64,000 nt of DNA from Blepharisma japonicum (lineage: Eukaryota; Ciliophora; Heterotrichea; Heterotrichida; Blepharismidae). The notes beneath the pieces are model-generated. The model had not been told where the DNA came from and ran no database searches. It saw only the letters and a list, made by a program, of their open reading frames with translations. Both the position numbers and the translations under genes were made by a program. Positions 8,101-37,500 of the stretch are shown one piece after another. The stretch is taken from positions 248,001 to 312,000 of the forward strand of contig CATKHK010000005.1 in assembly GCA_949751835.1 (NCBI GenBank). The letters run 5' to 3'. Within the stretch, counting starts at the first letter, position 1, and every line of letters begins with the position of its first letter.

Positions 8101-8575
8101 GGAAAAAATTATAAATAAATTTGATGAAGATCCAAAAACTGAATATATTCCTAAAAAAGATCAACTAAAGAACCTTATTTTCTGTTGTAAGAAGAAAATA
8201 AAAAATCACAGTGATGAATTAAATGATGGGGTGCAGGAAACATCATGCTCAAGGCCACTCAAACATAATCATCAAGAAAAAAATAGTGAGGATAGAGAAC
8301 TTTCTGAACGCTATAATGAAATAAACCCATCTACAGAAATAAAGAATTCGCCTTGAAAATGCTGTAAAAAAAGGCAAACATGTAAAAATGATTTAAAAGA
8401 TCAAAGTGAAGCTTTTGATCAACCTGATGAAGTCTATGTTTATAGCTTTACAGATGAAATCCACTCTGAAAGTACTGGAATTGAAGAAATCGAGCAATCT
8501 AGAGTAAGAAAATGGCTGGGAATTATCTCAGAAAAGCATGAGCTATTTAATATTCTTTTCAAAAGAGTGCCTTAG
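2168..8575 (+). CDS. Receptor copy 1: malectin/LamG/REJ/GPS protein cut short by an in-frame TAG
   Basis: With TGA as Trp a single frame runs from ATG 2168 to a TAG at 8573-8575, giving 2135 residues. The order is: signal peptide (about 1-28), malectin-like domain (29-190), Cys-rich repeats, LamG-like domain (about 297-505), Cys-rich repeats, second LamG-like domain (about 622-844), Cys-rich block, REJ module (about 1130-1640), GAIN-like region, GPS region near 1870-1905, one membrane span, then a Lys/Glu-rich cytoplasmic stretch. Receptor copy 2 has CAG where this copy has TAG, so the last four membrane spans are lost here. The GPS motif also has Ser (TCC 7850-7852) where copy 2 has Cys. The product, if made, is probably a surface glycoprotein with one membrane anchor, or the gene is on its way to becoming a pseudogene. 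Confidence 0.7.
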
Positions 8576-14300: not shown

Positions 14301-17300
14301 ATGTGAAAATATTTTTCCAATGACCATATTAGCAAAATTTGGATTAGATTATATTTGCATCCTTTACTCCAAAAATATTACTGTTGAGCTTGGAAAGGAC
14401 TTTGCTATAAAAGATGAAGTAGTATCGCTTATAAAAGGATCGCTAAAGTGCGGTACAGAATGTGGATATGATGCAAAGGATATAAATTTATCCCTAAAAT
14501 ACTCTGTAACTCCTATCACTCCTCTATCTATAATAGATGCTCCCAATACAGTATTATACAATTGCCAGGATTTGTTAATTTCAGGCCAAAAATCAACAGG
14601 AAATCTTAACTCTGCTCTCGAATATAAATGAGCAATCTCATCAGACCCCCCTTTGAAAGCCTTATTGCAGTTCAATACCGATTATCAAAAACAAATTTCT
14701 TCCTTTTCTATACCAAGTAGTGATTTATCAACAGCAAGCATCACAGTTACTCTCACAGTTAGAAATGTTTTGGGTAGTGTAGGTACAAATTCAATTGTCA
14801 TTGAATCAATTCCAAACGGAATTTCAGTAAATTTTGATAGAGCTACAAACAATCAATTATTAATAACCCAGTCAAATTTTTATGCTGCTGGGTCAATTGT
14901 ATCATGTGAAGATATTAGTGAGCTTGATTTAAGCTGGAAACTTGTTAGTGCAACTGGGAATTTGACATCTGTGGATGAGAAATCTATTTGGGAAAACCAA
15001 AAATGGCCATCAAGCTTGTATATCCCTGCAAGAAGTATTCCTTTATACACGTTTGCTACATTTGCTTTGGAAGTAACAAGCTTAAATTCAAATACCAAAG
15101 GAGTCGGAACCATTGAAATTTCTATATTTCCATCTTCTCCAATCATCAGATTTTCACGGACAGATGGGAATGCAGATATTACCAGAGCATTTGTTGTTGA
15201 TGCAAGCTCCAGCTATGACCCAAATGAAAATAGAGCGCTATTATTTAGCTGAAAGTGCACAAAGAGTAGCTCAATCGATTGCTCGTCATTAATTTCTGCT
15301 CCTTATTCATCAGTTTTAAAAGTACCTTCAAATTCTTTGGAAATTGGAATCGAGTATACATTTACCCTGACAGCTACAGCTGATTTTTCGAATGGAAGAC
15401 AAGGAAAATACTCAGTGCAAGCTGAAAAGATTATTAAAATAAGCACTGTCAATTATTATGTGCCTGAATTAAATATCTTTAATGCCTTAACTAACACCCA
15501 ATCAGATGCTATATCAGGAGGCAAAAGAGTTCCACTAGCCGCATCCACTGAAAATGATCAAAATAAACAGCTTTCTTATCAATGGAGCTTAGTAAGTGGA
15601 GAAAATCTTGAATTCACAACTCCACTTGATCAATATGCAATTGCAATCTCACAATATTCTTTAACTCCTGGAATTACTTACACTCTTAATTTAGCTGTTT
15701 TTGACGGAAGTCACTATTCTTCATTTTTTTACTCTTTTTATGCCAATTCTCCTCCAAGTTTAGGAAGTCTTAATATAACTCCAGGCGAAGGTATAGAATT
15801 AGATACAATTTTTGAAATGGAGGCTTTAGGATGGACTGATCAAGAAAATGATTACCCATTTACCTACTCATTTGGATATTTAACTGATAATGATTATGTT
15901 TTTCTGAATATAAAAAATCAAAGCTCGACACATTATACGACTTTTCCCTATCTGAGCCAAAACGATTTATCTATTTTTGTAGATGTTTATGATGGTTTAG
16001 GAGCCTTCTCAAGAGAAATCGTGAAGGTAAAGATATCGAAAAATAAAAATCTAAACCAAACTGAAGTATATTTAAACTCTGCAAGCTATATTTATTCAAT
16101 AACTTCTGATCCTCAAACATACCCTGGAGCAATTAGCGATTTGTGTAGCTCTATCCTTAATAGAGACTATTATCTAAAAGGTGAATTTATAAATCGTTCT
16201 GGTGACGACAAGGTATTTCTAGAAGAAGTAGTCAACTCAACTCTATATTGAACTAAAAGTTTAATTGACAGAGGCAACTTGGATAGTCAATCAATTTCAA
16301 CCTATGCAAACTTGTTAACAATGATAACGCTCAACCCTTATTTAGTGGATCATGACGTTGAAACTAAAGTGTTTGAAATGATAAATAGTATAGTTGATAA
16401 TATCCCACAATCGTGGATTCTGACAAATGAGCAAGCTGATGGCTATTTTATAGTAATTGATCAATCTTACCAGTATAATGCATCAAGTTTAGTTAATAAG
16501 ACGGATAGCCTTGAAAAAGGAGTTGACACGATAAATAGCCTTAGTAAGCTTATCCTTTCACAAATGGTTATTAATGAAAAAAATTTTATTACAACTGACA
16601 ATTTAGAAATTACCCTAACAGTAATGGAAAATAAAAACCTTGATGACTTTCAATTATATTCAAGCTCCAAAAGTGCTTCAGTATCATTACCATCCAATAT
16701 TTCATCTATATTAGAGAGCTACACATCAGCAACTGAAGTTGGTATCTCTATGGCCCTCCTGAAGTCTCCAAATAATCCTGGAAGTTTATCATCATCTGTT
16801 GTTGATTTCTCAATGTACGACGTTCAGAGGAATCAAAAAATTGAATTGAATATGACATCCACATATATCTTAATAGAAATTCCTGTCTGGAATCTTAAAT
16901 ACTCAGATTTTGTTCCTGAATGCGCTTATTTAGACACAAAATCTATGAATTGAAGTGCTCAGGGTTGTAAAAACCAGCAAATAAAATCAGAAAGCATCAT
17001 CTGTAGTTGCAATCATTTCACAAGTTTTGCAGCCATCGACTCTGCAGCTTCAACAATAATAAATTCAAATATTGGTGATACTGTAAATATATATGCATGA
17101 AATAGCTTAAATCAGTCAAATGCAATTGGTCTATATTTTGGTATTGCTACTTTGATAATTTATATTATTTTAGCAATTATTACATATAAAAAAGATAAAA
17201 AGGAAGAAAAAATAGAAGAAGAAATTAGAAAAAACCTGAAAGGGATACCAAAAAAACTGGAAAAAGTTATAAATAAATTTGATGAAGATCCAAAAACTGA

Positions 17301-18381
17301 ATATATGTCTAAAAAAGATCAACTAAAGAACCTTATTTTCTGTTGTAAGAAGAAAATAAAAAATCATAATGATGAATTAAAAGATGGGGTGCAGGAAACA
17401 TCATTCTCAAAGTCACCCAAACATAATCATCAAGCTAAAAATAGTGAGGCTAGAGAACTTACTGAATGCTATAATGAAATAAATCTATCTACAGAAATAG
17501 AGTATTCGCCTTGAAAATGCTGTAAAAAAAGGCAAACATGTAAAAACGATTTAAAAGATCAAAGTGAAGCTTTTGATCAGCCTGATGAAGTTTATGTTTA
17601 TAGCTTTACAGATGAAATCAGCTCTGAAAGTACTGAAATTGAAGAAATCGAGCAATCTAAAGCAAGAAAATGGCTGAGAATTATCTCAGAAAAGCATGAG
17701 TTATTTAATATTCTGTTCAAAAGAGTGCCTCAGAATCCCAGCCTTTGCAGAATTACTTTATATTTTTTAGTTCTCTTAGGACAGATGTTTTTTATTGGCA
17801 TGTTCTATGAAAATTCCACTTCCACCTCAGTCCAAAATTTTACCACAAATTCAACAAATTCAACAAACTCCATAACTAGAGACAATAGTTCAGAAGGCTT
17901 TTCAATCAATTACAGCTGGCATGATTTTTGGATTATGATATGGTCGTCTTTATTAATGACATTTATAGTCTCAGTTCTAAGTAAACTATTTATAGAGAAA
18001 AAAATAACTGGCCAAATAACAGCAATTCAATATATAAAAATTAAAAGACAAATCAAAATAAAAAGATGGGTAGGATTATTTTTTGCATGGGGTATTATGT
18101 TTTATTTTTTGTGAAGCATAGCATTATATGCTATTCAGTTTGATGAAGATATTAGTAGAGTTTGGGTTCTTAATACAGGTATAAGCTATACGGTTAATAT
18201 TTTCTTTACATCATTAGTTAAAATAGCAATTACTACTTATTTAACTATGAAATTTATAGAGCTTATTGAAAAATATAAAAAGAAAAAAGCTAAAGAAAAT
18301 AATGAAAATAATGAAGCTGAGATAATGTTCACAATTTTCCAGACGCCTACTACTGAAATTAAAACTGAAAGAACAAAATAA
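11317..18381 (+). CDS. Receptor copy 2, intact: malectin/LamG/REJ/GPS polycystin-1-like receptor
   Basis: One frame of 2354 residues with TGA as Trp, ending in TAA. Visible order: signal peptide (1-28); malectin-like domain (29-190, with FAEI and a closing SGIVLVKG); Cys-rich repeats (192-291); LamG-like domain (297-508); Cys-rich (510-624); LamG-like (625-847); Cys-rich (850-958); REJ module (about 1130-1640, with NSPPSLG near 1476 and GWTD after it); GAIN-like region; GPS (1879-1910, WSAQGC then CSCNHFTSF); membrane span at about 1933-1955; charged loop; four more spans at about 2141, 2203, 2251 and 2285. The HELFNILFKRVP stretch before the second span resembles the polycystin-1/PKDREJ loop. 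The channel-forming last six spans of polycystin-1 are absent and no clear PLAT domain is seen. By family it should be a plasma-membrane receptor cleaved at GPS. Glycan binding is inferred from the malectin and LamG folds; the ligand is unknown. Confidence 0.85.
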
Positions 18382-19642: not shown

Positions 19643-20668
19643 ATGTCAACAGGTGGTTTTGCTCTTCACGGCTATAACGAAGGATCGCTTCTCCAAAGAA
19701 TGCTATTGATGAAAGCGTCAGATTCTTTTGGGAATTGTCTTTCACATGTTAGCACTTTATCAAATGACCAAATTGTGATTGCAGATTATGGCTCATCTGA
19801 AGGATTCAACTCAATGATCTTTTTAAGTCGAGTTCTTTCTAAATTCAGAGAGACTTACACGCAATCTATTCTTGTTATTCACAATGATTTGCCAAGTAAC
19901 AATTGGGTGAAAACTTTTAAAACCCTTTTAGAATTTGAAGAATCCTATATAAAAGTTCCAGATGTCTATTTTTCGGCTATCGGGCGTTCTTTCTATGAGC
20001 AGATTTTGCCTAATAATTCTGTGCATATAGGTTTTTCATCTGCATCTCTCCATTGACTTTCTCAACCACTTTGTGCTCCTGATCACGTTATCCCATCAGC
20101 TTCCAAAGATCCTGAATTTAAAGCTATTGCATCTGAAGTTGCTCATAATGATTTGGTCACTCTCCTTAGACAGAGACATAAAGAGCTTGTCAATTCAGGG
20201 AGATTTATCATCCAGATTGCAGATGACACTTTACCAAATGTGATATCAAGTGTAATTTTCAATTCAACAGCAGAAATAATGTGCGCTAAAGGATATATAA
20301 CTGAAGAAGAAAAGAGAAGCATCACAATGCCAACATATGGAAGGTCTGATGAAGAAATACAAAGGGCTTTAGCTGAAATTTCTGATCTTTACAAAGTAGT
20401 CTCGTTAGGGAAGATAGGAGGCGAACAATTTTGGAATGAAGATCCTCCTCCTGAGGTGCTGCCTAAAGTTATTGATGGCTTTAAAAGACTATCTCTATTT
20501 TCTTTGAAGGAGTTATTGCAAAAAGTAGTCAAAAGAAGCGAAGAAGAAAGAAATCAAATATTTGAGCATTATGTCAGGGAAGTTACGGAGTTCATTGAGA
20601 ATAATCAAAATTGGAATTGGTCACAGTATCATTCAATTGTTCTTGAGAAAATTTCTCCTAGTAGTTAA
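19643..20668 (+). CDS. SABATH-family carboxyl methyltransferase A
   Basis: 341 residues with TGA as Trp at 20054-20056. The family (Methyltransf_7, known mostly from plants) transfers methyl from S-adenosylmethionine to carboxyl groups, or sometimes ring nitrogens, of small molecules. Family signs: DYGSSEGFNS (48-57) in place of the plant DLGCSSGPN loop for SAM binding; HNDLP near 80; RSFYEQILPNNSVHIGFSS followed by LHWLSQ near 110-140; a later RHKELVNSGRFIIQ strand; and YGRSDEEIQRAL near the C-terminal third. Length is close to the plant enzymes (about 360). It is the first of eight related copies in a row and lies 203 bases before gene B. The substrate cannot be told from the sequence. Confidence 0.82.
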
Positions 20669-20871
20669 AAAAGTTCTATCTTGAGGTCATTTTTATTATT
20701 AAATTTTAAATCATCAGTCTTTTATTAGCTAGAACTCATTTTTATCTTGAGTTTTACAAATCACAGTTTGTGAATGCTCGAAGAAAACAACTTAGGCAGC
20801 TATTAAAATAATTAAGAATTTTTGATGAAGATTTTTATGATTAAAAATTGTGATTAATAAAAGCAAATAAA

Positions 20872-21876
20872 ATGTCGTCAACTGATTATGCATTTAAAAA
20901 CTATAACGAGTATTCGAGCCCTGCATTAACTTTGATGATGAGGATGTCAACCGTTTTCCAAGAAGCTCTTAGCAATGCAAGAACTTTGACAAACTCAACG
21001 ATAACTATTGTAGATTATGGCTCATCAGAATGCTTAAATTCTATGCTTTTTATAAAGTATGCTTTAATCCCTTTCAGAGAAGCCTCTCAGCAGCCAATAT
21101 TTGTCTACCATAATGATTTGCCCACAAATAGCTGGTCAAAAGCATTTAAGACAATTTTGGAGCATCAAGATTCTTACATCAACCTCCCAAATGTTTATTT
21201 CTCCTCTGTTGGGAGATCTTTTTTTGAGCAGATTTTACCTAATAATTCAGTAACAATAGGAATTTCTTCAATATCTTTCCATTTCTTATCTGAAGATCTT
21301 TCTGCTCCTGATCACGTGCTGGCTTCATCATCAAATGATCCAGAGTTCAAAGAGAAAGCTGCTGAATTTGCACATAATGACCTTATAAACCTCTTAGAGC
21401 TCAGATATAATGAATTAGTGGACCATGGATCACTAATTCTGCAATTCGCTGGTGAGACAATGGATTTTGGGCAATATCTGCAAGATGCAAATGAAAAATT
21501 GTATGAAAAAGGAATAATTAATGAAGAAGAAAAGACAAATTTGACAGCTGCGTCTTATGGAAGAACAACGGAAGAAGTCCAGAGGGCTTTAGATCAAGAA
21601 CGAGAAAAGTATAGAGTCATTTATTTCAATAAAGAAAAAGTCTCCATGTTCAACGGGAAGAGTGAAAAAAATATTGAAATAGTTACTGGAATGAGTAGGA
21701 TGGTTGTGGGATTCCAGTTGCAAAAAACAATTAAAAGATCAGAGGAAGAGAGAAATGAAATACTGAAACTGTATGTTGATGAGATAAAGGATCTTTTTGT
21801 GGCAAAAGATCAGCAACTCTTTACCGAACTATATATTGTTGCGCTTGAAAAACTCCCAGGAAAAATAAATCCATAA
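20872..21876 (+). CDS. SABATH-family methyltransferase B, divergent
   Basis: 334 residues, with no TGA codons needed. It keeps the family frame (DYGSSECLNSM, HNDLP, RSFFEQILPNNSVTIG, APDHV, YGRTTEEVQRAL) but differs at places that are constant in A, C, F and G. The SAM-loop motif has GSSEC instead of GSSEG, and the usual HWLSQ is HFLSE, so the Trp that packs against the substrate in plant enzymes is missing. The C-terminal third is also different. It may act on another substrate or be less active. A decayed relative, E, lies at 26028-26766. Confidence 0.78.
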   Translation: MSSTDYAFKNYNEYSSPALTLMMRMSTVFQEALSNARTLTNSTITIVDYGSSECLNSMLFIKYALIPFREASQQPIFVYHNDLPTNSWSKAFKTILEHQDSYINLPNVYFSSVGRSFFEQILPNNSVTIGISSISFHFLSEDLSAPDHVLASSSNDPEFKEKAAEFAHNDLINLLELRYNELVDHGSLILQFAGETMDFGQYLQDANEKLYEKGIINEEEKTNLTAASYGRTTEEVQRALDQEREKYRVIYFNKEKVSMFNGKSEKNIEIVTGMSRMVVGFQLQKTIKRSEEERNEILKLYVDEIKDLFVAKDQQLFTELYIVALEKLPGKINP

Positions 21877-22672
21877 TTGATTAAGCTTTTTTTGATTGAA
21901 ATATTTATTAAATTGAATTAAAATAGAATTATTAAAGTGAAAGTGTTTGAAACTAATAATTTAGATCACTCAGCTCTATAAAATCATATTAATTTTATAT
22001 CAATAAATTTCCTGATAGATTCTATTTTTTCGCATCTTTATTTTTGAGAGACGTATTTGTCAAATGTGCAAAAGTACATATATAGGAATGATTAGTTATT
22101 AATTTTTTATAAATTTTATTCAAAATAAAGGAACTCATCTTTAAATTGGAAGAGTTTTTTGGTTTAAATTTAATTAGAGTAATTATATATCCAAATTGCA
22201 ATTTCTTGGCAATCGATCTTAATTAATAAGTTATTTGGGTATCTTCCATCTCTTGGAAATTCAAGATTTTGTTTTTAATTAAAAGGGATCAATAAGGCAA
22301 TTAAAATCTGTTTTCCTTGCCTAATTATTTATTATATTTCGCTTAATAATTATTATGCAATTTATCTTAGAAATTAGCAAGATATTCAAGTTATCTCAAT
22401 TTAAATAAGATTTGTAGAGTAGAGTGAAAAAGTTCTTATGACATATTTATTTCAATAAAAGTTTAGCCAATTAAATCTTATTTTTAATATCTATTTTTTA
22501 GCCAGTTTTGTATTGCCTTTTTGGACTTTTTTAATAACGGATAGTAAAATGACTTGAAAAGGGCAAACTCAAGAATAAATTTTATTTTATTAAATAAATA
22601 AAAATGCTCAAATATGCCTTTGAAGCATTAATTCATTGATTTTTTGACTAATCTTTTTGAGAATTATAATAA
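21877..22672. other. Spacer upstream of methyltransferase C
   Basis: No gene. From about 22310 it contains the block shared with the receptor downstream flanks and with the upstream region of F. Close to the start, TTGATTTTTTGACTAA precedes the ATG by about 40 bases, and similar strings precede F and G, so it may be a promoter element. Confidence 0.5.
22310..22560 (+). repeat. Shared non-coding block, copy 3 (upstream of gene C)
   Basis: Diverged form of the block at 9420-9700. It has the GTAGAGTAGAGTGAAAAAG landmark, then a TTTAATATC stretch and an AACGGATAGTAAAATG end. Its place upstream of a methyltransferase but downstream of the receptors suggests shuffling of flanks between the two arrays. 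Confidence 0.55.
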
Positions 22673-23692
22673 ATGTCAACAGGTGGCTACGTTCTCCATG
22701 GCTATAATGAAGGATCACTTTATCAAAGGATGTTGTTGATGAAATTATCAAATGATTTTATGGAAAGTCTAGCCCATGTTAGCCGCTCTACAAGTGAGCA
22801 GATTGTAATTGCTGACTATGGCTCATCTGAAGGCTACAATTCTATGCTCTTTTTAAGAAAAGCTTTATCAAAATTTCGAGAAAATTCATCCAACCAAATT
22901 TTGGTTATTCACAACGATTTGCCAGACAATGAATGAGTAAAAACTTTTAAAACGATTTTGGAGTCTGAAGAATCGTATTTAAAGCTCCCAGGTGTATATT
23001 TCTTAACTGTTGGTCGTTCGTTTTATGATCAAATTTTGCCTAATAACTCTGTCCATATTGGACTCTCATCAGCAGCGTTTCATTGGCTTTCTCAACCCAT
23101 CAGCGCACCTGATCATGTTATTCCTTCTTCTTCTAATGATCCAGAATTTAAAATTACAGCTTCCACCCTTGCGCATAACGATTTGGTTACCCTTCTTCGT
23201 AATCGGCACAAAGAGCTTGCCAGCTCAGGACGTCTTATAGTGCAGTTTTTATTTGAAAACGTATCAACAACATGCTCTTTTGGTGCAATCATAAATACAA
23301 CTGTTGAAAACGCTTTTAATAAAGGATATATTACAGCACAAGAAAAAAGGGACATAACAGTACCTTGGTATGGAAGAACATATGAAGAAGTTCAAAGAGC
23401 TTTAAATGAAGTTTCAGATTTATATAAAATTATTTCATTTCCACACTTGGATGACAGCAAACTTTCTTTTGAAAGTCTACCAGAAGAGATCAGAACTGGT
23501 ATAATGCATGAACTTAAAAACCTTGAGGTATATTTTTTAAAAGGTGCTTTACGAAGGGCAATTAAAAGAACTGAGGAAGAAAATAATGCTATTTATGAAT
23601 TGCTTATTAAAGAATTATTTGATGCTATTGATGGGAGCGAAGTTGATAGATGGCCAGTTTTTCAGGAATTTGTCCTCGAGAAAACTTCTTAA
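22673..23692 (+). CDS. SABATH-family carboxyl methyltransferase C
   Basis: 339 residues. TGA at 22934-22936 stands where gene A has TGG (NNWVKTF), which supports TGA as Trp. All family motifs are present: DYGSSEGYNSM (from residue 48), HNDLP, RSFYDQILPNNSVHIGLSS, HWLSQ, YGRTYEEVQRAL. By my reading it differs from gene F at 11 of 339 residues, while the flanks of C and F differ far more. It is the third member of the A-B-C cassette. Confidence 0.85.
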
Positions 23693-25096
23693 GTTATTAA
23701 TCTTATTTATAGCTTAATTTGTATATAAAAATAATATATATATTTAAATTTAAATACAAAGAGAAAATTAAATCTGCTTTTAAAATTTTAAACAATATCT
23801 GTAACATCAGCGTAGCAATTTGAAAGATTAGAACAAAGGGTTTATTTTTCTATAAATTATGAGACTTGAGTTTAGATCTTATATGATATTTGCTCTTAAT
23901 TTTAATGTTTTATAATATACAAATATAATAAAGCATCTTATTTCTACACTAAAGTATCTTTAACAAGAGAAAAGCAACCCTCATAATCTCTATAAGTTTT
24001 ATTAGGCATTCATTCCACTCCTAAGATGCTAATTTTTGATAGGGTTCCTAATAATACCATTCGTACATAAAAAGGTCTATGATTTGTAAATTTGATACTC
24101 CATATGCATTTGCATTTATATTAAAATGAACACTTTAAATTGAAAGCAATTCTTACTTGTCCAAAAAATGCCGTTTTTCTTATACCCTAAGTTCAAGCCG
24201 ATAGCTATTGCTTAACTAAATATTTATTGCTCTTTTTAAAATATTTTAAATAGAATAACAACTTTAAGTTTAAAAAAAAATGATAGGGCTTTACAAGCAT
24301 TTTTAATTTTTTAACTCCTTGATCGAGCGATGAGTTATGATTTGATAAAGGATGGAGGGACAAAGGATCAAATAAATGATTTAAAATATTCCGACAAAAA
24401 ACTAAACTGCCTATGATTTAAAAATTTAAATAAAAGCTTAAAGCAGCTCAAACAATTAAAATTTTGGATTTTTATAGTTTTATATTTAAAAACTATTAAA
24501 AATAATTAAACTCTTAAAAACAAATTATAAAAGTATATTTAAATTATAAATATATCAATCTACTCATTTTAATAAATTGTTTTACTAGCAAATGAATTTA
24601 TTATAAGATCTTAATTGTATCATTTTTATGTCTTTATCAATTATAAAAACTATTAAACATCATAGTATCTGAATTCTTATATCATCCATTATTGTTTGAA
24701 AGTTAAATTTTATTTCTCACTATTCAGTAAACAAATTAAAAGGAAATAGCAAAGTCAAATTAAAAAGGATCAGCATATTTAACTCAAAGTTCTTTTTATT
24801 TTAATTTAATAAATGATGTACAGAAAGCATTATATCTTTTCCCTTTTTAAGAGGCTAAATAAATTCAGATATGATACACTATTAGGCGCAAAAAAAAGAG
24901 ATCAACAAATTTATCATAAATGTTAGAAAGCTGATCTTGAGTAATCCAGTAAAACAATTGTATAGAAATATATATTAAAATCTCTTAAGCTTTTTTTTAA
25001 AACATTCATGAACTGTAGATTAAAATGATCATTTAAAGTTAATAAATTTAATAATAAGCATGACCTTAAAAGAGAACTAACACTTTTTAGATATAT
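23693..25096. other. 1.4 kb AT-rich spacer
   Basis: No gene seen on either strand. It holds the string TTAACTCCTTGAT at 24311-24323, which recurs in reverse orientation at 29915-29927. Base composition is very AT-rich with long A and T runs. Confidence 0.5.
24311..24323 (+). repeat. Possible left end of a TTAA-flanked element
   Basis: TTAACTCCTTGAT here faces ATCAAGGAGTTAA at 29915-29927, which lies just beyond a decayed PiggyBac transposase. PiggyBac elements insert at TTAA and have short terminal inverted repeats. A 13-base inverted match is expected by chance several times in 64 kb, so only its position beside the transposase makes it notable. Confidence 0.25.
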
Positions 25097-25790
25097 GTAG
25101 AAATCTTCCAAAGAAAAATTGGATGGCATTGTGACCATTTCAAATTTTGATAGTCTCAACGAACTCTGTGACATTCCTAATATAATGCCATATATTTGAT
25201 TTCTTTCTTTTCCATTCTTTCCAATATCGCCTTCAAAAAATTTATAGATAGCTGCTTCACTTTATGTAAAAATTGCTTGCCATTCATTTTTTCTAACGAT
25301 ATTACTTTGTAAAGGCGAGAGAATTAATCGTAATCCTTTGTATTCTTCTTCAGATTTTCAATAAGTCGGCATTGCGATGTTTCTCTTTCCATCTTCAGTT
25401 ATATATCCTTTATATGCATTATTTCTGCTGATGAATTAAAAATTACATGATATCACAGTTGATATAGTTACTTCAGATATCTAAATGATAAATCTCCCTA
25501 AATTGGCAAGCTCTTTATGTCTTTTTCGAAGGAGAATGACCAAATAATTATGAGCAATTACAGATACAGTAGCTTTAAATTCAGGATCTTTGGAAGCGAT
25601 AGAGCAAGACGATAAGTACACAAAGTTGTGAGATAATAATCAATTGAGAGCTGCAGATTAAAACTCTATACGCACAGAGTTATTAAGTAAAACCTGCTCA
25701 TAGAAACAGCACCTGATAGCTGAAAGACATTTGAAATCTTTATATAGGATTCTACAAACTCTAAAAAGAGTTTTAAAAGTTTTGGCTAAG
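25097..25790 (-). pseudogene. SABATH methyltransferase D, decayed, inverted
   Basis: Read on the minus strand, this region follows gene A closely from its TGGGTGAAAACTTTT region to its C-terminal third. Examples are GATCCTGAATTTAAAGCTA and AGACATAAAGAGCTT, and the string CACAGAGTTCGTTGAGA near the end. Many stops and frame changes are present and the first 90 codons are missing. It is the only member of the array on the minus strand. It sits before E and F as A sits before B and C, so a copied A-B-C cassette with this part inverted is the simplest reading. Confidence 0.85.
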
Positions 25791-26027
25791 AACTTTCACA
25801 AATTAGTTTAGCCTAATTTAATGAAGATATTATTAGCAGAATGTTCTTTAAGAAATTTGCAATTTGAATATATAAATTTTCAAATAAAAATATTTAAAAT
25901 ATATTCATTAATTTTTATTTGAATAAAGATTTTATATGACTATTTTTAAAAATTAATTGAAATAAAGGAAGCAAATTCTTAATAAATGTTTATGATTTAA
26001 AATTGTGATTGAACTAAACTTAATAAA

Positions 26028-26766
26028 ATATCCTCAACAAATTATGTATTTTAAAATCTATAACGAGTATCTGAGCTCTGCATTAACTTTAAAGATGAAA
26101 ATGTCAAACTCTTTCCACTAATGCACGGAATTTGACTAGCTTGATTATTGCCATTGCAGATTATGGCTAATCAGAATGCTTAAACTCTATGTTTTTCATA
26201 CTTATGCTTTAAACCTTTCAAAGAAACCTCTCAGCTACCACTTCTTATTTTCGTAATGAATCGCCCATAAATGGTGAATCAAAAGCATTTAAGACCTCCC
26301 GTATATTTATTTCTCTTCTCTTGAGAGAATTTTTTGAGCAGATTTTACCTGATAATTATTAGCAATAGGAATTTCTAGATAACTTTCACTTCTTATCTGA
26401 AGATCTTTCTGCGCCTGATCGTGCACTGGCTTCATCTTCAAATAATTCAGAGTTTAAAGAGAAAGCTGTTGAATTTGTGCATAATGACCCTATAAATCTA
26501 TTGAAGCTCGGATATAAAGAATTAGTGGAACATGGATCTCTAATTCTGCAATTTTCTGAGAGACGATGTGCTTTGGGCAACATCTGCAAGATGCAAATGA
26601 AAAATTGCATGAAAAAAAATGAAGAAGAAAAAGCAAGTTTGTCAGCTGCGTTGTATGAAAGAACAACAGAAAATGTTTACAGAACTATCGATCTAGAAGA
26701 AGAAAAATATAGAGTTATTTATTTCAATAACGAAAACGTTCCGATGCTCAACAGTAATTTAATATA
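26028..26766 (+). pseudogene. SABATH methyltransferase E, decayed relative of B
   Basis: This copy aligns with gene B from its start, where ATA (26028-26030) replaces ATG, through TATAACGAGTAT, the GATTATGGCT region and the APDH-like region to ATTTATTTCAATAA. Several frame changes lie in the first 450 bases. A stretch from about 26477 to 26766 is still open. The last third of B (after residue about 260) is missing; the sequence passes into the flank of gene F. The 60 bases before the start also match the upstream region of B. Confidence 0.85.
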
Positions 26767-26799
26767 GCGTCTCATTAAGTGGCCTTCTGCTAAGTATTT

Positions 26800-27010
26800 A
26801 ATGAATTTTGCCTTATAATTAATAAAAAATTTTCATTCATATCTATCTATTTTTAGCTAAAAATTAGTCAAGATATTTTAGTTGCCTCAAATTTAAATAT
26901 GACTTCCAAGAATAGAACGATAAGGTCTGATGAGATATTTGTTTATATACTTAGCTCTTTAGCTGCTTTGAATTACTTTTTAGACTTTTATAATAACGGA
27001 TAGTAAAATA
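26800..27010 (+). repeat. Shared non-coding block, copy 4 (upstream of gene F)
   Basis: Homologous to 22310-22560. The landmarks are GTCAAGATATTTTAGTTGCC, then AATAGAACGATAAGG in place of the GAGTAGAGTGA string, and the end AACGGATAGTAAAATA. Confidence 0.55.
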
Positions 27011-27150
27011 AAATAACTTTTAGAAAAGGGCAAATTCAGTAAAAAGTTTCTATTTTATTAGGTAAAATAAATGTGCTAAGCAACCAAAATATTGCCTTTG
27101 AAGTATTAATTTATTGATTTTTTTACTAAATTTTTTATTAATTATAATAG

Positions 27151-28170
27151 ATGTCAACAGGTGGCTACGTTCTCCATGGTTATAATGAAGGATCACTCTA
27201 TCAAAGGATGTTGTTGATGAAATTATCAAATGATTTTATGGAAAGTCTAGTCCATGTTAGCAGCTCGAAAAGCGAGCAAATTGTAATTGCTGACTATGGC
27301 TCATCTGAAGGCTACAATTCTATGCTCTTTTTAAGAAAAGCTTTATCAAAGTTTCGAGAAAATTCATCCAAACAAATTCTTGTTATTCACAACGATTTGC
27401 CAGACAATGAATGAGTAAAAACTTTTAAAACTATTTTGGAGTCTGAAGAATCGTATTTAAAGCTCCCAGGTGTATATTTCTTAACTGTTGGTCGTTCGTT
27501 TTATGATCAAATTTTGCCTAATAATTCTGTCCATATTGGACTCTCATCAGCAGCATTTCATTGGCTTTCTCAACCCATCAGCGCACCTGATCATGTTATT
27601 CCTTCTTCTTCTAATGATCCAGAATTTAAAATCACAGCTTCCACCCTCGCGCATAACGATTTAGTTACCCTTCTTCGTAACCGGCACAAAGAGCTTGCCA
27701 GCTCAGGACGTCTTATAGTGCAGTTTTTATTTGAAAATGTATCAACAACATGCTCTTTTGGTGCAATCATAAATACAACTGTTGAAAATGCTTTTTCCAA
27801 AGGATATATTACGGAACAAGAAAAAAGAGACATAACAGTACCTTGGTATGGAAGAACATATGAAGAAGTTCAAAGAGCTTTAAATGAAGTTTCAGATTTA
27901 TATAAAATTATTTCATTTCCACACTTGGATGACAGCAAACTTTCTTTTGAAAATCTACCAGAAGAGATTAGAACTGGTATAATGCATGAACTTAAAAACC
28001 TTGAGGTATATTTTTTAAAAGGAGCTTTGCAAAGAGGGATTAAAAGAACTGAGGAGGAAAATAATGCTATTTGTGAGCTGCTTATAAAAGAACTATTTGA
28101 TGCTATTGATGGAAGTGAGATCGATAGATGGCCAGTTTTTCAGGAATTTGTCCTCGAAAAAACTTCTTAG
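27151..28170 (+). CDS. SABATH-family carboxyl methyltransferase F
   Basis: 339 residues with Trp-TGA at 27412-27414. It is nearly the same as gene C (11 residue differences by eye). All motifs are present: DYGSSEGYNSM, HNDLP, RSFYDQILPNNS, HWLSQ, YGRTYEEVQRAL. The close match stops at the gene ends, because the 3' flanks of C and F do not align and the 5' flanks are clearly more diverged. Recent gene conversion between C and F, or strong selection on both, would explain this. TTGATTTTTTACTAAA lies just upstream, as in C and G. Confidence 0.85.
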
Positions 28171-28829
28171 TTAAAATATTTATAAAATATAATATCTTTA
28201 AAGAACCAGTCCCATTTAAGGCAGTTAGTTTGACTAAAATGAAATTTTTATTTCCAATATGTTCGGAAGTGAATTAAATAAATCAAACTAATATAGAGGA
28301 AATCAGACTTTGTTTGTTATTATATGTTAATTCGTAACTTTAAGCAAGTGGAAGTGATCTAAAGAGGTTAGTGCATGTACGAAAAGCCTATATAGACCCA
28401 AGCTAGCATTGCTTATTAGAATAGAAGAACTTAATTAGTTTAAATTATTATAATTGCTCATTACTAAACATAATTTATCTTATTAAAATATTATAAAAAA
28501 TTTTTGTTGAGTATTTAAAAGAAATAAAATATTAAATATTAAATCTATGCTGATAAAAGAATAAAGAATGATATAAATTTGCTTAGTTCTCAATTGTCGC
28601 CTTAAAATAAAATCTCAAGCATCAATTTAAAGAAACAGAAAAAATTCATAATCTATGTTCCAAATTTAATTGCCAGAATCAAAACTTCAAATTGTTTCCA
28701 TACTCACTTCCCTGGAGTGCGCACACAACGTGCCACTCCAAAGAAGTGAGTATAATACTGAAACAAGGTTCATTAACTAAAGAACTTATTTTAAATATCG
28801 TAATCTTATTCATAATTCACTTATCATCT
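28171..28829. other. Spacer between methyltransferase F and the PiggyBac relic
   Basis: AT-rich and without a gene. It holds the 52-base inverted repeat at 28701-28752, which is more GC-rich than its surroundings. Confidence 0.5.
28701..28752. repeat. Imperfect palindrome with TA at both ends
   Basis: TACTCACTTC at the left is matched by GAAGTGAGTA at the right, and inside it TGGAGTG is matched by CACTCCA, with a short loop near 28724-28731. Only a few positions of the arms mismatch. It is more GC-rich than the spacer around it. It could be a small mobile-element footprint, a hairpin, or the fused ends of an excised TA-bounded element. Confidence 0.7.
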
Positions 28830-29807
28830 CCTTTATTATCCCAGTCTCCATAACGATTATCAAAACTATCTCCAATTGCCAAAATCTTGTGCTAACATTG
28901 TAAAAGAAATTATGAGTTAGGAAGAGAAATGCAATCGATGAAAGTATGATAAAATTCAAAGGACACCATATTTCAAGCAAGCAAATAAAATGAGGATTCA
29001 AAGTATTCACTTTGTGAAATTGTAAAACAAGCTATTTATGAAATTATGAAATTTACCGAGGTAAATCATCGAATAGAGAAAATAATCTCTTAATGTCTGT
29101 GGTATTTAGATTGATTGAAGAATTAAGACCAAATTGACATCATTTATACTGTGATAATTGATATACAAGTCCTTATTTATTCAGAATTTTAGAAAGTAGA
29201 AGATTTGGGGCAAATGGAGCAGTGAGAAAAAATAGACTTGGTCTACTAAAGTTTAGAGTAAATAAATTGAATCGACAGAATTTCATTTCAACAATCTTTT
29301 GCTATTTTTCGCCTGATTTGATAAGAGAGTAGTCTGAGTTTTATCTAATATTGAATCTACTTCTTTTTAAGACACAGCAGCTAGGCACTCTTCTGAAGTG
29401 GGAAAAATAAAGCCTAATATAGAAGCCAACTATTCTCAATCAATGACAGGTGCTGACTATTTTAATCAATTTCTCAAAAGTTATGCAATTGGAAGAAAGT
29501 CAAATAAATGATGGAAATCGTGCTTTTATTACTTTATCCAAATCACTTTGATCAATTCTTATATAGTTTATAAGAATCACAGTAAACTAATGACTCGTGG
29601 AGAATTCAGGATTAGTGTGGCCTTGGGATTGATAGGATACAATTACAATAGTAATTCAATAATGAAGAAAGCCATAGAGGGAGATATAAATTGAAGATGT
29701 ACTTACTGTAAAGAATTGAATAAAGACAGTAAACTTACTATATGTATTCCGCTTGTAATGAGCCAATGTATCGTAACTGTTTTATTAGTCACTATTGTAG
29801 AATATAA
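28830..29807 (+). mobile_element. Decayed PiggyBac-family transposase
   Basis: With TGA as Trp, a frame of about 135 codons from about 28900 reads IDESMIKFKG, KQIKWGFKVFTL, then YCDNWYTS, then GANGAVRKNRLG. This is the order of the first two catalytic Asp boxes of PiggyBac transposases. After a TAG (near 29330), a frame change and a TAA comes the third Asp box (QSMTGADYFNQF, then RKSNKWW and INSYIVYK). The end reads WRCTYCKELN and, in a shifted frame, ACNEPMYRNCF, the Cys-rich C-terminal domain. About four lesions separate the pieces and the N-terminal third is mostly unreadable. It is a plain DNA transposon remnant. Domesticated PiggyBac proteins excise DNA during ciliate development, but this copy is broken and is not such a gene. 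Confidence 0.85.
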
Positions 29808-30341
29808 TATATAATTTTACTTATAAAAAATAGCATCAGTATACCTGGGCAGTTCTTGTCTGAAAGGGATAATTAGGTCCAAAAATTTTGGGCAGTTTTT
29901 TGGGTAGTTTTGTCATCAAGGAGTTAAAAAAACTTTTGAAATTGGTTTACTGATGGATTTTAATTCCAAACTGGATTTATTTAATTTTTATAAAGGGATT
30001 AAGTATTTATATTTTATTAGGATCGAAAAAGTAAGTTATATAAATAATTTAATTATTTTTTAGAGAATTACAATAAATGAGAGAAAAATAAATCTTATAA
30101 AGATTTTCTTGCATAAAGGTTTCAACTATTAAATTTTAATTTTGATATCTAGTACTCTGTCAAACTTTGGTGCATTTTTTATTCTTTATGTAACGGTTAT
30201 TGAAATAAAATGAAATTTTGGGAAAAGGAAAGCATCACATAAATAATCTTTCAAATATTAAAGCAAATAAAGAAAGCAAATTATTTTAAATAAAACATTG
30301 ATTTTTTGATTTTTTAACTAAATTTTGTTAAGTTGTAAAAA
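29808..30341. other. Spacer between PiggyBac relic and methyltransferase G
   Basis: The first 120 bases may be the 3' end of the transposon and end at ATCAAGGAGTTAA. From about 30110 the sequence resembles the upstream regions of C and F (an AACGGTTATTGAAATAAAATG string, then TTGATTTTTTAACTAAA shortly before the start of G). No gene. Confidence 0.45.
29915..29927 (-). repeat. Possible right end of a TTAA-flanked element
   Basis: ATCAAGGAGTTAA, the reverse complement of 24311-24323, lies about 110 bases after the PiggyBac transposase relic. If real, the element would span 24315-29923 and carry methyltransferase copies D, E and F. Confidence 0.3.
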
Positions 30342-31361
30342 ATGTCAACAGGAGGTTACGTATTAGAAGGGTACAACGAAGGGTCGCTTTTTCAAAGAAT
30401 GCTTCTGATGAAATTATCGGATATTTTTATGGAAAGTCTAGCCCATGCTAATAGTCTAGGAAGCGAGCAAATTGCAATTGCTGACTATGGCTCATCTGAG
30501 GGTTATAATTCTATGCTCTTTTTAAGAAAAGCTTTATCAAAGTTTCGAGAAAATTCTTCCAAACAAATTCTTGTTATTCACAACGATTTGCCAGACAATG
30601 AATGAATAAAAACTTTTAAAACGATTTTGGAGTCTGAAGAATCGTATTTAAAGCTCCAAGATGTATATTTCTTAACTATTGGTCGTTCGTTTTATGATCA
30701 AATTTTGCCCAATAATTCTGTTCATATTGGGCTTGCTTCAGCAGCATTTCATTGGCTTTCTCAACCACTTAGTGCGCCAGATCATGTTATTCCTTCATCT
30801 TCAAGTGATCCAGAATTTAAAAATGTGGCTTCTAGCCTTGCACATAATGATTTAGTTTCTCTTCTTCGAAACAGACATAAAGAACTTATCAGCTCCGGCC
30901 AATTAATAGTACAATTTTTATTTGAAAATGAGTCAAATATAAATCCACATGGTGTAATTATAAATACAACTATTGAAAACGCGTTTCGTAAGGGATATAT
31001 CACTGAAGAAGAAAAAAGAAGCATTACAGTTCCATGATACGGAAGAACTTATGAAGAAGTTCAAAGAGCTCTAAATGAAGTTTCAGACTTGTATAAAATT
31101 GTTTCATTTCCACATTTGGATAATAGCAAGCTTTATTTTGATAATCTTCCTGAAGAAATTAAAGTTGAAATAATGAACGAGCTTAAAAACCTTGGGGCAT
31201 ATTTTTTAAAAGGAGCATTGCAAAAAGCAATTAAAAGAAACCAGGAAGAAAAAAATGCAATATATGTTCTGCTAATAGCAGAATTGTTTGATGTCATAGA
31301 TGTAAGCAAGCTTGACAGATGGCCAATTTTTCAGTATTTTGTTCTAGAGAAATGTTGTTAA
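30342..31361 (+). CDS. SABATH-family carboxyl methyltransferase G
   Basis: 339 residues with Trp-TGA at 30603-30605 and 31035-31037. It is of the C/F type, with the same motifs (DYGSSEGYNSM, HNDLP, RSFYDQILPNNS, HWLSQ, YGRTYEEVQRAL). Positions about 30478-30710 are almost the same as in F, while the parts before and after differ more, which again points to gene conversion. The TGA at 31035 stands where C and F have TGG. Confidence 0.84.
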
Positions 31362-31719
31362 TAATTAAAAAATATATAGCATTATATATAATTTCAATGG
31401 CTTAATTAACAAATGGATTTTTTACAAATATTTCCTATATTGCTAAATTTTTTGATAATTAGTATGGCTATGCTAAAGTTTTAAAGGGTTCAAAAGTTAA
31501 CTATTTTAAAAAATTTATGCTTAATCTGCCTTATTAGATAAAAGAGTTTTACTAAATAATCAGTTTCAAAAAGAATACAGCTTATGAGATATTTTATTAG
31601 ATAATCGATATTATTACCAGGTTGAGCGTTTTCCATATTTTGCGATTATTGATTTTAAAAAATATTATTTTTCTGATAAGATGATATCGATATTTTTTAA
31701 TGCTATTAATCAATTATAA
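31362..31719. other. Spacer between G and H
   Basis: AT-rich, no coding frame or repeat recognised. Confidence 0.5.
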
Positions 31720-32738
31720 ATGCCAGCAGGTGGGTACGCTCTTCTTGGCTACAATGAAGGCTCTTTTCATCAAAGAATGCAACTTATGATGGCAGCAGAT
31801 ATTTTCATAGAAAATCTCGAGTATGTTAAAAGCCTAACAAATGGCCAAATTTTGATTGCCGATTATGGATCATCGGAAGGCTACAACTCACAAATGTTTC
31901 TTAGTGAAACTCTTTCCAAGTTTAGAGAGAATTCATCAAATCCAATTTTAATTGTTCATAATGATTTGCCTGAAAATGACTGAATAAAAACTTTTCAAAC
32001 TGTTTTGAACTCTGAAGAGTCCTATTCGAAACTTCCAAATGTCTATTTTTCAGTCATTGGGCGGACATTTTTTGATCAGATTTTACCCAATAATTCAGTC
32101 CATCTTGGATTTTCATCGCATTCATTTAATTGACTATCCCAGCCTCTTAGCGCGCCCGATGCTATTATACCTTCAGCTTCAAATGATGGAAGATTTAAAG
32201 CTATAGCTTCTGAGATCGCACATAATGATTTGAATTCACTCCTCCGCCAAAGACACAAAGAGCTTATCAATTCAGGACGATTAATTCTACAGTTTATAAA
32301 TGAAAGTATATCAGCCACCTCTTTTTGTACCATTATTAATGCAGCAACTGAAAATTTAATGAAAAAAGGAATTATAACTCAGAAGAAAAAAGAAATATAA
32401 CGATTCCGATGTATGGAAGAACAGATGAAGAAGTTCAAAGAGCCCTAAATGCAGTCTCTGATTTATATAGAGTTATTTCCTTTACTCAAGTAGGAGAGAT
32501 TAGGCTTCCTTTTGAAAGTCTTTCTACCGAATCAGTTAATGGTATCAGAAATGCGCTTAAAAAGCTAATAGTATCCTTTGTAAAAGGAGCTTTGCAAAGA
32601 GCAATTAAAAGAAATGAGAAATAAAAAAATGCAATATATGAATTGTTTGCTAAAGAAGTCTCAGAATTTGCTGACAGGAGCGAAGTAGATCGATTGCCAA
32701 TGTCTCACTTAATTTTACTCGAGAAAATCTCATCATAA
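31720..32738 (+). pseudogene. SABATH methyltransferase H, recently broken
   Basis: It starts like the others (MPAGGYALLGYNEGS) and keeps DYGSSEGYNS, HNDLP and RTFFDQILPNNSVHLG, with Trp-TGA at 31981 and at the HWLSQ-like site (NWLSQ). Compared with the other copies, one base is missing near 32380 (at the ITEEEKR site) and a GAA codon has become TAA at 32622-32624. After both lesions the old frame is open to TAA 32736-32738. With only two lesions in about 340 codons the loss looks recent. If the first lesion were a sequencing error, the second would still remove the last 37 codons. Confidence 0.8.
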
Positions 32739-34582: not shown

Positions 34583-37500
34583 ATGGAGAGCAGCTTCAAT
34601 AGTAAAGTTGACCTAGCTCTAACCCGAGAACTGAAACCACTTCTAATTACATTTGAAAAAGCAAAAGAATGGGAATGAAGCGATCTAATTCGCTGGCTGA
34701 AGTCAGTTAAGCATCTTCTAGACCATCATAAGAGTGAAGCAATACCTGAAAAGTTCACGCTAGCCAAACGTCTTCAGCAATGCTTGAATCCTGCACTACC
34801 ACAAGGACTTCATCTTATAACGCTAAGCATATATGACACTATTTTAGAAGAACGACAAAACTTCGAGACTTTATCCTTTTTCTCAACTGGATTTTTGCCT
34901 TTCTTTGAATATGCGTCATCGGAAAACCAAAAAGCAGTGGTCAGGCTGGCAAAGCAGTTCTTACATTTGGATCCTGCAATCAGTTTGAGAAATGCTATGA
35001 TTGGAATTGTTACACCGCTGCTACCAGGCCTTGAAGAAGGGACTTCTAATCAAGATGTAGAAAGAGAAGTAATGAATTTATTTGATGCTTTTGCTGAAAA
35101 AGATAAATTTGGGCTTTTTCAAGCAATTTGGCATGCACTTTTGAAGACCAGTCGTGCAAGATTAGGAGCTTTAAATTATTTAACAAAAAGGATTCCTAAG
35201 GATTCCAGAACCATCATAGAATTTATGCCAGAAAAAACAATGCTACTAAGTGCATTAGCTGCTGGCATAAATAGTGAAAATATTTTGGTGCAGCGAGCAA
35301 CAATTGATTTGTTGATAAGCCATTTCCCAATCCTCCAAAATGAAGGAGTTTTTATACTTGAGGAAAAAAGATCAATTTTAGAACTGTTATTTAGACTACT
35401 AGCGAAAAGAGACTCAACGTTGACAAGAAGAATTTGGGAATACGTCCAACTAGGGGAAAATTTACCGTCTGAAGATATTTTTGAAAATATTAAAGAAGAA
35501 TACATTGTGCCTACCTTAAAAGCGATTTTAGAAGCAAAAATCGATTTATCTGGAATTTCAAACCAGGAACAAATCAGCAAGGTCATTGAGCCATTAGTAA
35601 TTGCAGAGGCTGCACTTGATAAAGATAATTTAGGCACTTTATTGCTAAGAGATATTTCAGTGAGTTTGATTTCTAACGTAAAAAACCACAAAGATCATGA
35701 AACTTATGGAAAAGAAGTATGTGAGAAATTTTCAACAATGCTTAGAAGTGATTTATGTCTAAACAATGTGAAGTTAATATGGCAAGCTCTAGCAGATTCA
35801 CTTGAAGAAAATTGCATTGGAGAGGTTGGGGATATTATGGATGTCATTTATTTCTATATCACAAATTTCCCAATCAGCCAAAAAAGCTATGAGTTTATGG
35901 TTCCTATCCTTGATATTTTATATACAAATATGCACAGACTTCACAATTCTTTGAGTATCTCTTTGAAGATCGTTCAGATTTTATTAAGCAAAACTGAAAT
36001 TACAGTTGACATTCAAAATTCAATATCATGCTTCTATAGATTTTACGTAGAGTTTTCAAAAAATCGAGAAATTCCATTAAAAGACCTAAAACGAGCTTCA
36101 TTAATTGCGTTTACATTAGCTCGCCATGGAACTCCTGAGTTTGGCTGGCTAAGTTGCATAATTAATTTCATAGTAAACCAAAAAGATGTAGAGAAATCCC
36201 TAATGGGGATCGAAATTGCTATAAGTTTATTAAAAGAAAACTTAGAGCCCTACAAAGATTTCCTTCAAACCGAGCTTGGTGGCCTCGAAGACTTCTTCTT
36301 TAAGCAGCTTTGACAATTTCTCGATCAGTCAAAAAAACGAAAAAAAATTGTAAAGCTTATATGAAAGCTTTCTGATCCAATAACCTATATTCTCCAGGCT
36401 ATTCAAAACAATTTAGCATTATCTAGATTAAACCCTCCAAATGAAGTTAAGCCAAGAATTGATACACTTAATCGTTTAAATGTGGTATGGAATATCACAA
36501 GGAGCCTCAATAGAAGCGAACTTACTGACCTATTCTCCCGTGAATGCATTTTATTAATCTTAGACAAGCTTGAAGACCCTCACCCAGCAGTGAAGCACGC
36601 AGCTAAAAATTTCTTAAAAAATGCTTCTCCAGAATTTTCATTATTTATTGACCCATTATACGAATCCCTGCTATATACAGGGATTTCTCCTTTATATCCT
36701 CCAATCTCATACTCCTTCAAAATCTTTAAAACCCTCTTGTCAGCAAATTGCTTTGCTTATCAAAATATTGAAAAAATGTCATTGGGAGAAAAAATGCAAG
36801 ACCTATGGGTTGAATATAGAAGAAACATCGTGAATTCTGAAGACGTCGCAACTTATGCAGATTTATTGACTGAAGTTTGTGTTAACTATTTAGTAGCCCC
36901 TGCTGCTAATAGAAAAGATAGTGAAAACCAAGGCTCTGCTGGAGAAGTGATAGAGTTGATTTTAAGCTATGGAGATCGAGAGCTTGCTTATCGATGTGTT
37001 TTCAGAATTATCAGGTCGCTTAAAAAAATATTTGAAGCGAAAGATGGAGTCATGCAATTAGTTTACTTGAATATTTTGAACCAAATTTTATATAACTGCA
37101 GGATAGAAACTAATAAAGACAGATGCAAAGCGTTATTATCTATAAATTTCATATCAATTTTAGAAGATGATAACTTCTTGACTGGGCAAAATGAATACGT
37201 CAGAAATCACTGGGTGAGCTTTTTGATAAAATCATTAGATTTTGTGTCTGAAAGAATAGATTACGACACTTTTATAAAAATGGCTTCAATTGTCATAGAA
37301 AAATTATGCGCACAAGTAGAAATCAGTGTTAATAAAAAGCATCTGCTATTAGGGATTATGTCTTATTTGCATTATGGCCTCAGCATATCAAAACCCGATG
37401 CTTTTGCTATTTTAGAGCCAGATCCTCATTCAGTGGCAAGAGAGTCGTTTTTTGAAGGAATGTTTAAAAGACTATTAGGGAGCGACTCAGTCCCTGTTAT

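What the first reader, a model, noticed from the sequence alone, without database searches (positions are those of the whole stretch)
19643..32738. Tandem array of eight SABATH-type methyltransferase genes in a ciliate
Five intact and three broken copies carry DYGSSEGxNS, HNDLP and SFYxQILPNNSVHIGxSS...HWLSQ, the order seen in plant salicylate/jasmonate/benzoate methyltransferases (Methyltransf_7). The family is known best from plants. An expanded, still-changing array suggests specialised small-molecule chemistry. If the host is Blepharisma, its pigments or mating pheromone chemistry offer possible acid substrates, but this is a guess.
Basis: partly seen in the sequence, partly recalled or inferred. 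Interest (0 to 1): 0.75.

Follow-up and report, generated by a model that had tools for sequence, protein, structure and literature searches.

The report
Ciliate cluster of small-acid methyltransferase genes
A single-celled ciliate, very probably Blepharisma, carries a cluster of eight copies (five intact) of a methyl-transferring enzyme gene best known from plants but closest to a bacterial fatty-acid enzyme; the enzyme family is known, while its spread in a ciliate and the chemistry behind it look unstudied.

Summary
The array is real. Window 19643-32738 holds eight copies of a Methyltransf_7 (PF03492, SABATH) gene. Five have complete frames once TGA is read as Trp (88.6-113.2 bits, cut-off 29.8); three are broken. 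Genome-wide about 21 frames are intact, six of them in a second array on another contig. Code, telomere repeat and base composition fit Blepharisma.

The family call is right, but the nearest solved relative is a mycobacterial fatty acid O-methyltransferase, not a plant enzyme. Bacterial transfer or old inheritance stays unresolved.

Most likely function: SAM-dependent methyl-ester formation on small carboxylic acids. Twelve of 22 rows keep the Gln and Trp that hold the carboxylate in characterised members, and nine of ten duplicate pairs tested show purifying selection, the tenth being saturated. Copy 2 has lost both residues. Three distant paralogues lack the SAM motif; the one modelled is still predicted as a SABATH fold.

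Substrate unknown. This is a new, expanded branch of a known family, of moderate interest.

The parts
19643..20668 (+). Copy 1: intact SABATH methyltransferase, 341 aa; Gln18, His137, Trp138 (Trp138 codon is TGA)
   Evidence: PF03492 113.2 bits; residues and codons
20872..21876 (+). Copy 2: intact frame, 334 aa, divergent; carboxylate-site Gln to Ala and Trp to Phe; 70% identical to a single gene on contig C30
   Evidence: PF03492 88.6 bits for 20866-21873; residues
22673..23692 (+). Copy 3: intact, 339 aa, 97% identical to copy 4
   Evidence: PF03492 101.5 bits
25096..25852 (-). Relic of a copy-1-like gene on the opposite strand, with in-frame TAG and TAA
   Evidence: tblastn pieces, stops, inverted repeats I1-I3
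26050..26755 (+). Relic of a copy-2-like gene with in-frame stops and more than one frame
   Evidence: tblastn 51.5% identity, E 2.8e-59; stops; D8-D12
27151..28170 (+). Copy 4: intact, 339 aa; recent duplicate of copy 3 (dS 0.17, dN/dS 0.10)
   Evidence: PF03492 103.9 bits
28946..29814 (+). piggyBac-type transposase relic (DDE_Tnp_1_7), split frames, inside the array; not part of the methyltransferase function
   Evidence: PF13843 61.5 and 28.4 bits
30342..31361 (+). Copy 5: intact, 339 aa, about 82% identical to copies 3 and 4
   Evidence: PF03492 103.9 bits
31720..32738 (+). Copy 6: recently broken; frame change near 32385 and an in-frame TAA at 32622, no intron candidate near either
   Evidence: PF03492 89.1 bits for its first 226 aa

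Best explanation
A lineage-specific expansion, in a Blepharisma-like ciliate, of SABATH (Methyltransf_7) enzymes. Each intact copy with the full site most likely binds S-adenosylmethionine in the Rossmann core (DYGSSEGxNS, HNDLP). It clamps a small carboxylic acid between Gln18, His137 and Trp138 under a variable helical cap, and transfers the methyl group to the carboxylate to give a volatile or membrane-permeable methyl ester. Bacterial fatty acid O-methyltransferase is the nearest working model, so medium-chain or modified fatty acids are the first substrates to try. Copy 2 and its C30 relative have lost Trp, copy 2 also Gln, and may act on another acceptor. Shown: family, residues, selection, duplications. 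Predicted by computation: fold. Inferred: methyl-ester chemistry. Guessed: substrate and role.
Against: No activity or expression data. Trp is also kept in caffeine-type N-methylating relatives, so the site does not by itself fix the acceptor. Identity to any SABATH enzyme of known structure is 24% or less in the structural alignment. NCBIfam gives no name to the three copies tested. The neighbouring proteins scanned show no recognisable biosynthetic cluster, so they give no substrate hint. The cap diverges faster than the core in eight of nine ciliate pairs, but does so among bacterial rows too, so that is no evidence for diversification in the ciliate. Ten of 22 rows lack the full Gln+Trp pair.
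Confidence: 0.7

Rival explanations
1. Fatty acid O-methyltransferases in the strict sense: the ciliate enzymes do what the mycobacterial enzyme does, making methyl esters of medium-chain or 3-hydroxy fatty acids for storage, volatility or detoxification.
For: Best sequence match of all solved structures and best structural match, though by about one Z unit only (29.1 against 28.0). A cyanobacterial relative is fused to a cyclopropane fatty acid synthase domain.
Against: 24% identity. The tree neither supports nor rejects grouping with the FAMT clade (AU p 0.548 when held together; 0.264 with the other bacteria). Copies 1, 3, 4 and 5 have His where this FAMT has Gln154.
Confidence: 0.3
2. The enzymes methylate acids of Blepharisma signalling or pigment chemistry, for instance gamone 2, an amino-acid-derived lactate, or its precursors.
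For: Gamone 2 is 3-(2'-formylamino-5'-hydroxybenzoyl)lactate, a carboxylic acid (PMC10892320, passages). The family elsewhere methylates small signalling acids (general knowledge; for salicylic acid PMC11278463, passages).
Against: Gamone 2 is described as the lactate, not a methyl ester, and as common to all species, whereas this gene family is expanding. No neighbourhood evidence supports it and expression could not be looked at.
Confidence: 0.08
3. The genes came by transfer from plants or algae, as the plant-like motifs suggest.
For: In the best tree ciliates and plants lie on one side of a branch against bacteria, but with support of only 76/48.
Against: Ciliate rows form their own clade (97/94) apart from a tight plant clade (100/100) on a long branch. 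The best solved match is bacterial.
Confidence: 0.04
4. Mostly a decaying array: only a few copies matter and the rest are on the way out.
For: Three of eight window copies and the C18 copy are broken.
Against: Intact duplicates show dN/dS 0.09-0.32 in 9 of 10 pairs tested, and about 21 frames are open over the family's length.
Confidence: 0.12
5. Copy-2-type members, lacking the clamp, methylate a nitrogen or other atom, or are non-catalytic.
For: Gln to Ala and Trp to Phe in copy 2, Trp to Phe in the C30 gene; the two are 70% identical with dN/dS 0.16. N-methylating plant xanthosine methyltransferase aligns Asn at the Gln position.
Against: The SAM motifs stay largely intact in copy 2. dS between the pair is 1.2, so dN/dS is rough. 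The C30 gene keeps Gln.
Confidence: 0.5

Closest known systems
Mycobacterial fatty acid O-methyltransferase (PDB 5f2k, 5f2n, 5f2o)
   Same: Best sequence and fold match; Gln and Trp of the carboxylate site; 328-329 residues aligned
   Different: 24% identity; His in place of Gln154 in copies 1, 3, 4, 5; PF03492 is single-copy in 18 of 19 bacterial genomes looked at through loci, against about 21 intact frames here
Plant SABATH enzymes (SAMT 1m6e, LAMT 6c8r, IAMT 3b5i, caffeine-type 2eg5, 2efj, 8uzd)
   Same: PF03492, same fold, same motif order; HWLSQ as in 2efj; His-Trp pair as in LAMT (PMC10420828); gene-family expansion (general knowledge)
   Different: 16-19% identity; the four plant rows form their own clade; their substrates cannot be carried over
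PbBSMT of Plasmodiophora brassicae
   Same: A Methyltransf_7 protein in a non-plant eukaryote, reported to methylate salicylic acid (PMC11278463, passages)

Membership tests
SABATH / Methyltransf_7 (PF03492) | Profile score above the curated cut-off | tested here: met
   Five of five intact window copies, 88.6-113.2 bits against 29.8; genome-wide 22 of 23 matches are over the cut-off
SABATH / Methyltransf_7 (PF03492) | Rossmann methyltransferase core with the SABATH helical cap | tested here: met
SABATH / Methyltransf_7 (PF03492) | SAM-binding motifs (D-x-G ... N, N-D-L-P) | tested here: met
   D48, G50, N56, N81, D82, L83 kept in all five intact window copies; lost in the C13, C9 and C31 paralogues outside the window
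SABATH / Methyltransf_7 (PF03492) | Carboxylate-binding Gln and Trp | tested here: met
   Met in copies 1, 3, 4, 5 and in 12 of 22 rows; not met in copy 2 (Ala, Phe) and nine further rows
SABATH / Methyltransf_7 (PF03492) | Methyl transfer from SAM to a small acid or nitrogen | not testable with these tools
   Needs protein and assay
Bacterial fatty acid O-methyltransferase | Groups with the FAMT clade in a tree | tested here: inconclusive
   AU p 0.548 with the FAMT clade, 0.264 with other bacteria; neither rejected
Bacterial fatty acid O-methyltransferase | Activity on C8-C12 fatty acids | not testable with these tools
   Property of the model enzyme per PMC9744835 (passages)
Plant SAMT/BAMT/JMT subfamilies | Placement inside the plant clade | tested here: not met
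   Ciliates one clade 97/94, plants one clade 100/100 (only 4 plant rows, partial sequences)

The most novel reading that the evidence does not exclude
A ciliate independently evolved a plant-scale SABATH repertoire: ester-forming enzymes with the full clamp, clamp-less members with a new acceptor (copy 2 and kin), and ancient SABATH-fold paralogues without the SAM motif that serve as binding or regulatory proteins. Together these would form a methyl-ester-based signalling or defence chemistry not yet described in ciliates.
Probability: 0.25. Interest if true: 0.65.

Novelty: new member of a known kind. Interest (0 to 1): 0.42.

Why it matters
SABATH enzymes are studied mostly in plants, where expansion goes with scent, hormone and alkaloid chemistry (general knowledge). 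A ciliate with about 21 open frames, whose recent duplicates are under purifying selection, is a case of the same kind of expansion outside plants. It gives a concrete handle on the little-known small-molecule chemistry of heterotrich ciliates. The altered sites (Trp to Phe or Tyr, Gln to Ala, loss of the SAM motif) are natural variants for testing what the clamp does.

Tried and rejected
Introns as the cause of the broken copies: rejected. No 15- or 16-base GT...AG stretch lies in the 100 bases scanned around the frame break of copy 6 or of the C18 copy, and no GT in the 45 bases printed around the later stop of copy 6; the two matching pieces of copy 6 overlap, with no inserted sequence between them. 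Fast-evolving cap as a sign of ciliate substrate diversification: seen in eight of nine pairs but much the same among bacteria (mean top-residue share core/cap 0.545/0.347 in 28 bacterial rows, 0.724/0.518 in 16 of the 22 ciliate rows), so dropped. Viral carrier: 35 pattern stretches in viral contigs, none encodes a relative; this scan needs short conserved peptides, so it is no proof of absence. Horizontal transfer: three placements looked at; the one in the best tree is unsupported, the other two are not rejected. Gene neighbourhood as substrate hint: ten proteins near the C155, C134, C15 and C30 genes gave TPR, PhoD-like phosphatase, cyclin, Kelch, zinc-finger/ASCH, translation-factor and 3-hydroxyisobutyrate-dehydrogenase-like domains, two gave none; 12 window proteins outside the family were scanned as well; many other ORFs of the fetched loci were not scanned. 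Literature: 10 searches. By title and start of abstract none of the listed papers is on SABATH genes in a ciliate; the lists were capped (20 of 52, 10 of 10,167). 'methyltransf' occurs 0 times in the main texts of two Blepharisma genome papers (PMC9942806, PMC9942856). Supplements could not be read, so this is not proof that it is unpublished. The 2003 SAMT structure paper is not held; the roles of Gln25 and Trp151 in SAMT are from recall.

Rows dropped: the tree left out one of 28 bacterial loci (L048, split frame), six of the 11 solved SABATH sequences, copy 6 and the relics. It included the open part of the broken C18 copy. Plant rows are partial sequences. Bacterial loci were picked by ciliate motifs, so that sample is biased. 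No other ciliate, fungal, algal or rhizarian sequences were available to me.
Full report
What is there. Window 19643-32738 contains eight copies of one gene family. Five have complete frames of 334-341 aa when TGA is read as tryptophan, and all five score 88.6-113.2 bits against Pfam PF03492 (Methyltransf_7, cut-off 29.8). Two relics lie between copies 3 and 4, one on the minus strand (25096-25852) and one on the plus strand (26050-26755), and the last copy (31720-32738) is recently broken by a frame change and a stop. Nothing that looks like a tiny intron explains the breaks of that copy. A piggyBac-type transposase relic sits between copies 4 and 5 (28946-29814).

Host. TGA alternates with TGG at the same tryptophan columns among paralogues. 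The 22 family frames, cut with a code in which TGA is Trp, end in TAA (18) or TAG (4). The window has 25-35% G+C in 2-kb steps. PMC9942806 (passages and section 5) gives the same telomere repeat, UGA as tryptophan, 41 Mbp and 66% AT for Blepharisma stoltei. The host is therefore very probably a Blepharisma; the species was not determined.

How large the family is. PF03492 finds 23 places in the genome, 22 above the cut-off. Searches with copies 1 and 2 find 28 and 27 places including fragments. Twenty-two frames of 270 aa or more were collected. One of them, on contig C18, is broken, leaving about 21 open frames: five in the window, six on C155, two on C15 and single ones on C134, C30, C88, C12, C73, C31, C13 and C9. 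Twenty of the 21 are over the PF03492 cut-off; the C31 one is just under it (27.8 bits). In bacteria the family is sparse: four of 299 genomes of one phylum have it, one of them the genome used as the centre, and 18 of 19 bacterial genomes reached through relatives have one copy, one has four.

Active site and mechanism. In plant SAMT, Gln25 and Trp151 hold the substrate carboxylate (recalled; numbering checked). In simulations of loganic acid methyltransferase Gln38, His162 and Trp163 do so (PMC10420828, passages). A 2026 paper reports that a proximity-and-desolvation mechanism has been proposed for MmFAMT and SAMT and that His162 of loganic acid methyltransferase is not a general base (PMC13223930, passages). 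The ciliate equivalents are Gln18, His137 and Trp138. Gln and Trp are both present in 12 of 22 rows, including copies 1, 3, 4 and 5; in 28 bacterial rows Trp is kept in 27 and Gln in 24 of the 25 with a letter there. In copy 1 the clamp tryptophan is itself encoded by the reassigned TGA. Seven ciliate rows, one of them the broken C18 copy, have Phe or Tyr in place of Trp; copy 2 also has Ala in place of Gln. Three long-branch paralogues (C13, C9, C31) have lost most of the SAM motif. Only the C31 protein was modelled; it is predicted as a SABATH fold (pLDDT 89.4; chains of 5f2n, 5f2o and 5f2k at TM 0.80-0.84). Its model was built with the family alignment, which favours the shared fold.

Selection. 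dN/dS by a Nei-Gojobori count with TGA as Trp is 0.10 for copies 3 and 4, 0.16-0.17 for these against copy 5, 0.09 and 0.20 for two pairs within C155, 0.15 for a C155-C134 pair, 0.32 for the C15 pair and 0.16-0.17 for two pairs with dS above 1; a tenth pair is saturated. The intact duplicates are being kept as proteins. The cap half changes faster than the core in eight of nine pairs, but bacterial rows show much the same, so this says nothing special about the ciliate.

Function. The best reading is a set of SAM-dependent carboxyl methyltransferases that make methyl esters of small acids, with some members altered towards other acceptors. The mycobacterial model acts on C8, C10 and C12 fatty acids and their 3-hydroxy acids (PMC9744835, passages), and a cyanobacterial relative is fused to a cyclopropane fatty acid synthase domain, so fatty acids are the first to test. 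Blepharisma gamone 2 is a carboxylic acid (PMC10892320, passages), but nothing here ties the array to it. The neighbouring proteins scanned give no clue.

Verdict. The plant emphasis is not. It is a new, expanded branch of a known enzyme family in an organism where I saw no report of it in the listings of 10 searches of an open-licence paper library.

Noticed in passing
window 28946-29814 +: piggyBac-type transposase relic inside the array (two of 12 PF13843 matches in the genome; three of the 12 span the whole profile); its first catalytic Asp position appears to read Asn (motif recalled and judged by eye).
   Followed up: partly
window 2168-8572 + and 11317-18381 +: Two giant proteins with the same Malectin and REJ domains, side by side upstream of the array.
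   Followed up: no
window 55141-56091 - and 58287-59234 -: Two Ostalpha-type organic solute transporters in the same window.
   Followed up: no
window 34583-39337 +: Dopey (DOP1) protein a little downstream of the array.
   Followed up: no
L021:3723-4709, L019:3500-4594, L020:3859-4788: Three long-branch SABATH-like paralogues that have lost most SAM-motif residues; the one modelled (L021) is predicted with high confidence as a SABATH fold. Possible non-catalytic members.
   Followed up: partly
L029:2822-5065: Cyanobacterial (Aphanocapsa lilacina MAG) 748-aa protein joining a cyclopropane fatty acid synthase domain to Methyltransf_7.
   Followed up: no
L009, L010 (contig C155): A second methyltransferase array with six open frames in both orientations and a fragment at L009:2620-2838.
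   Followed up: partly
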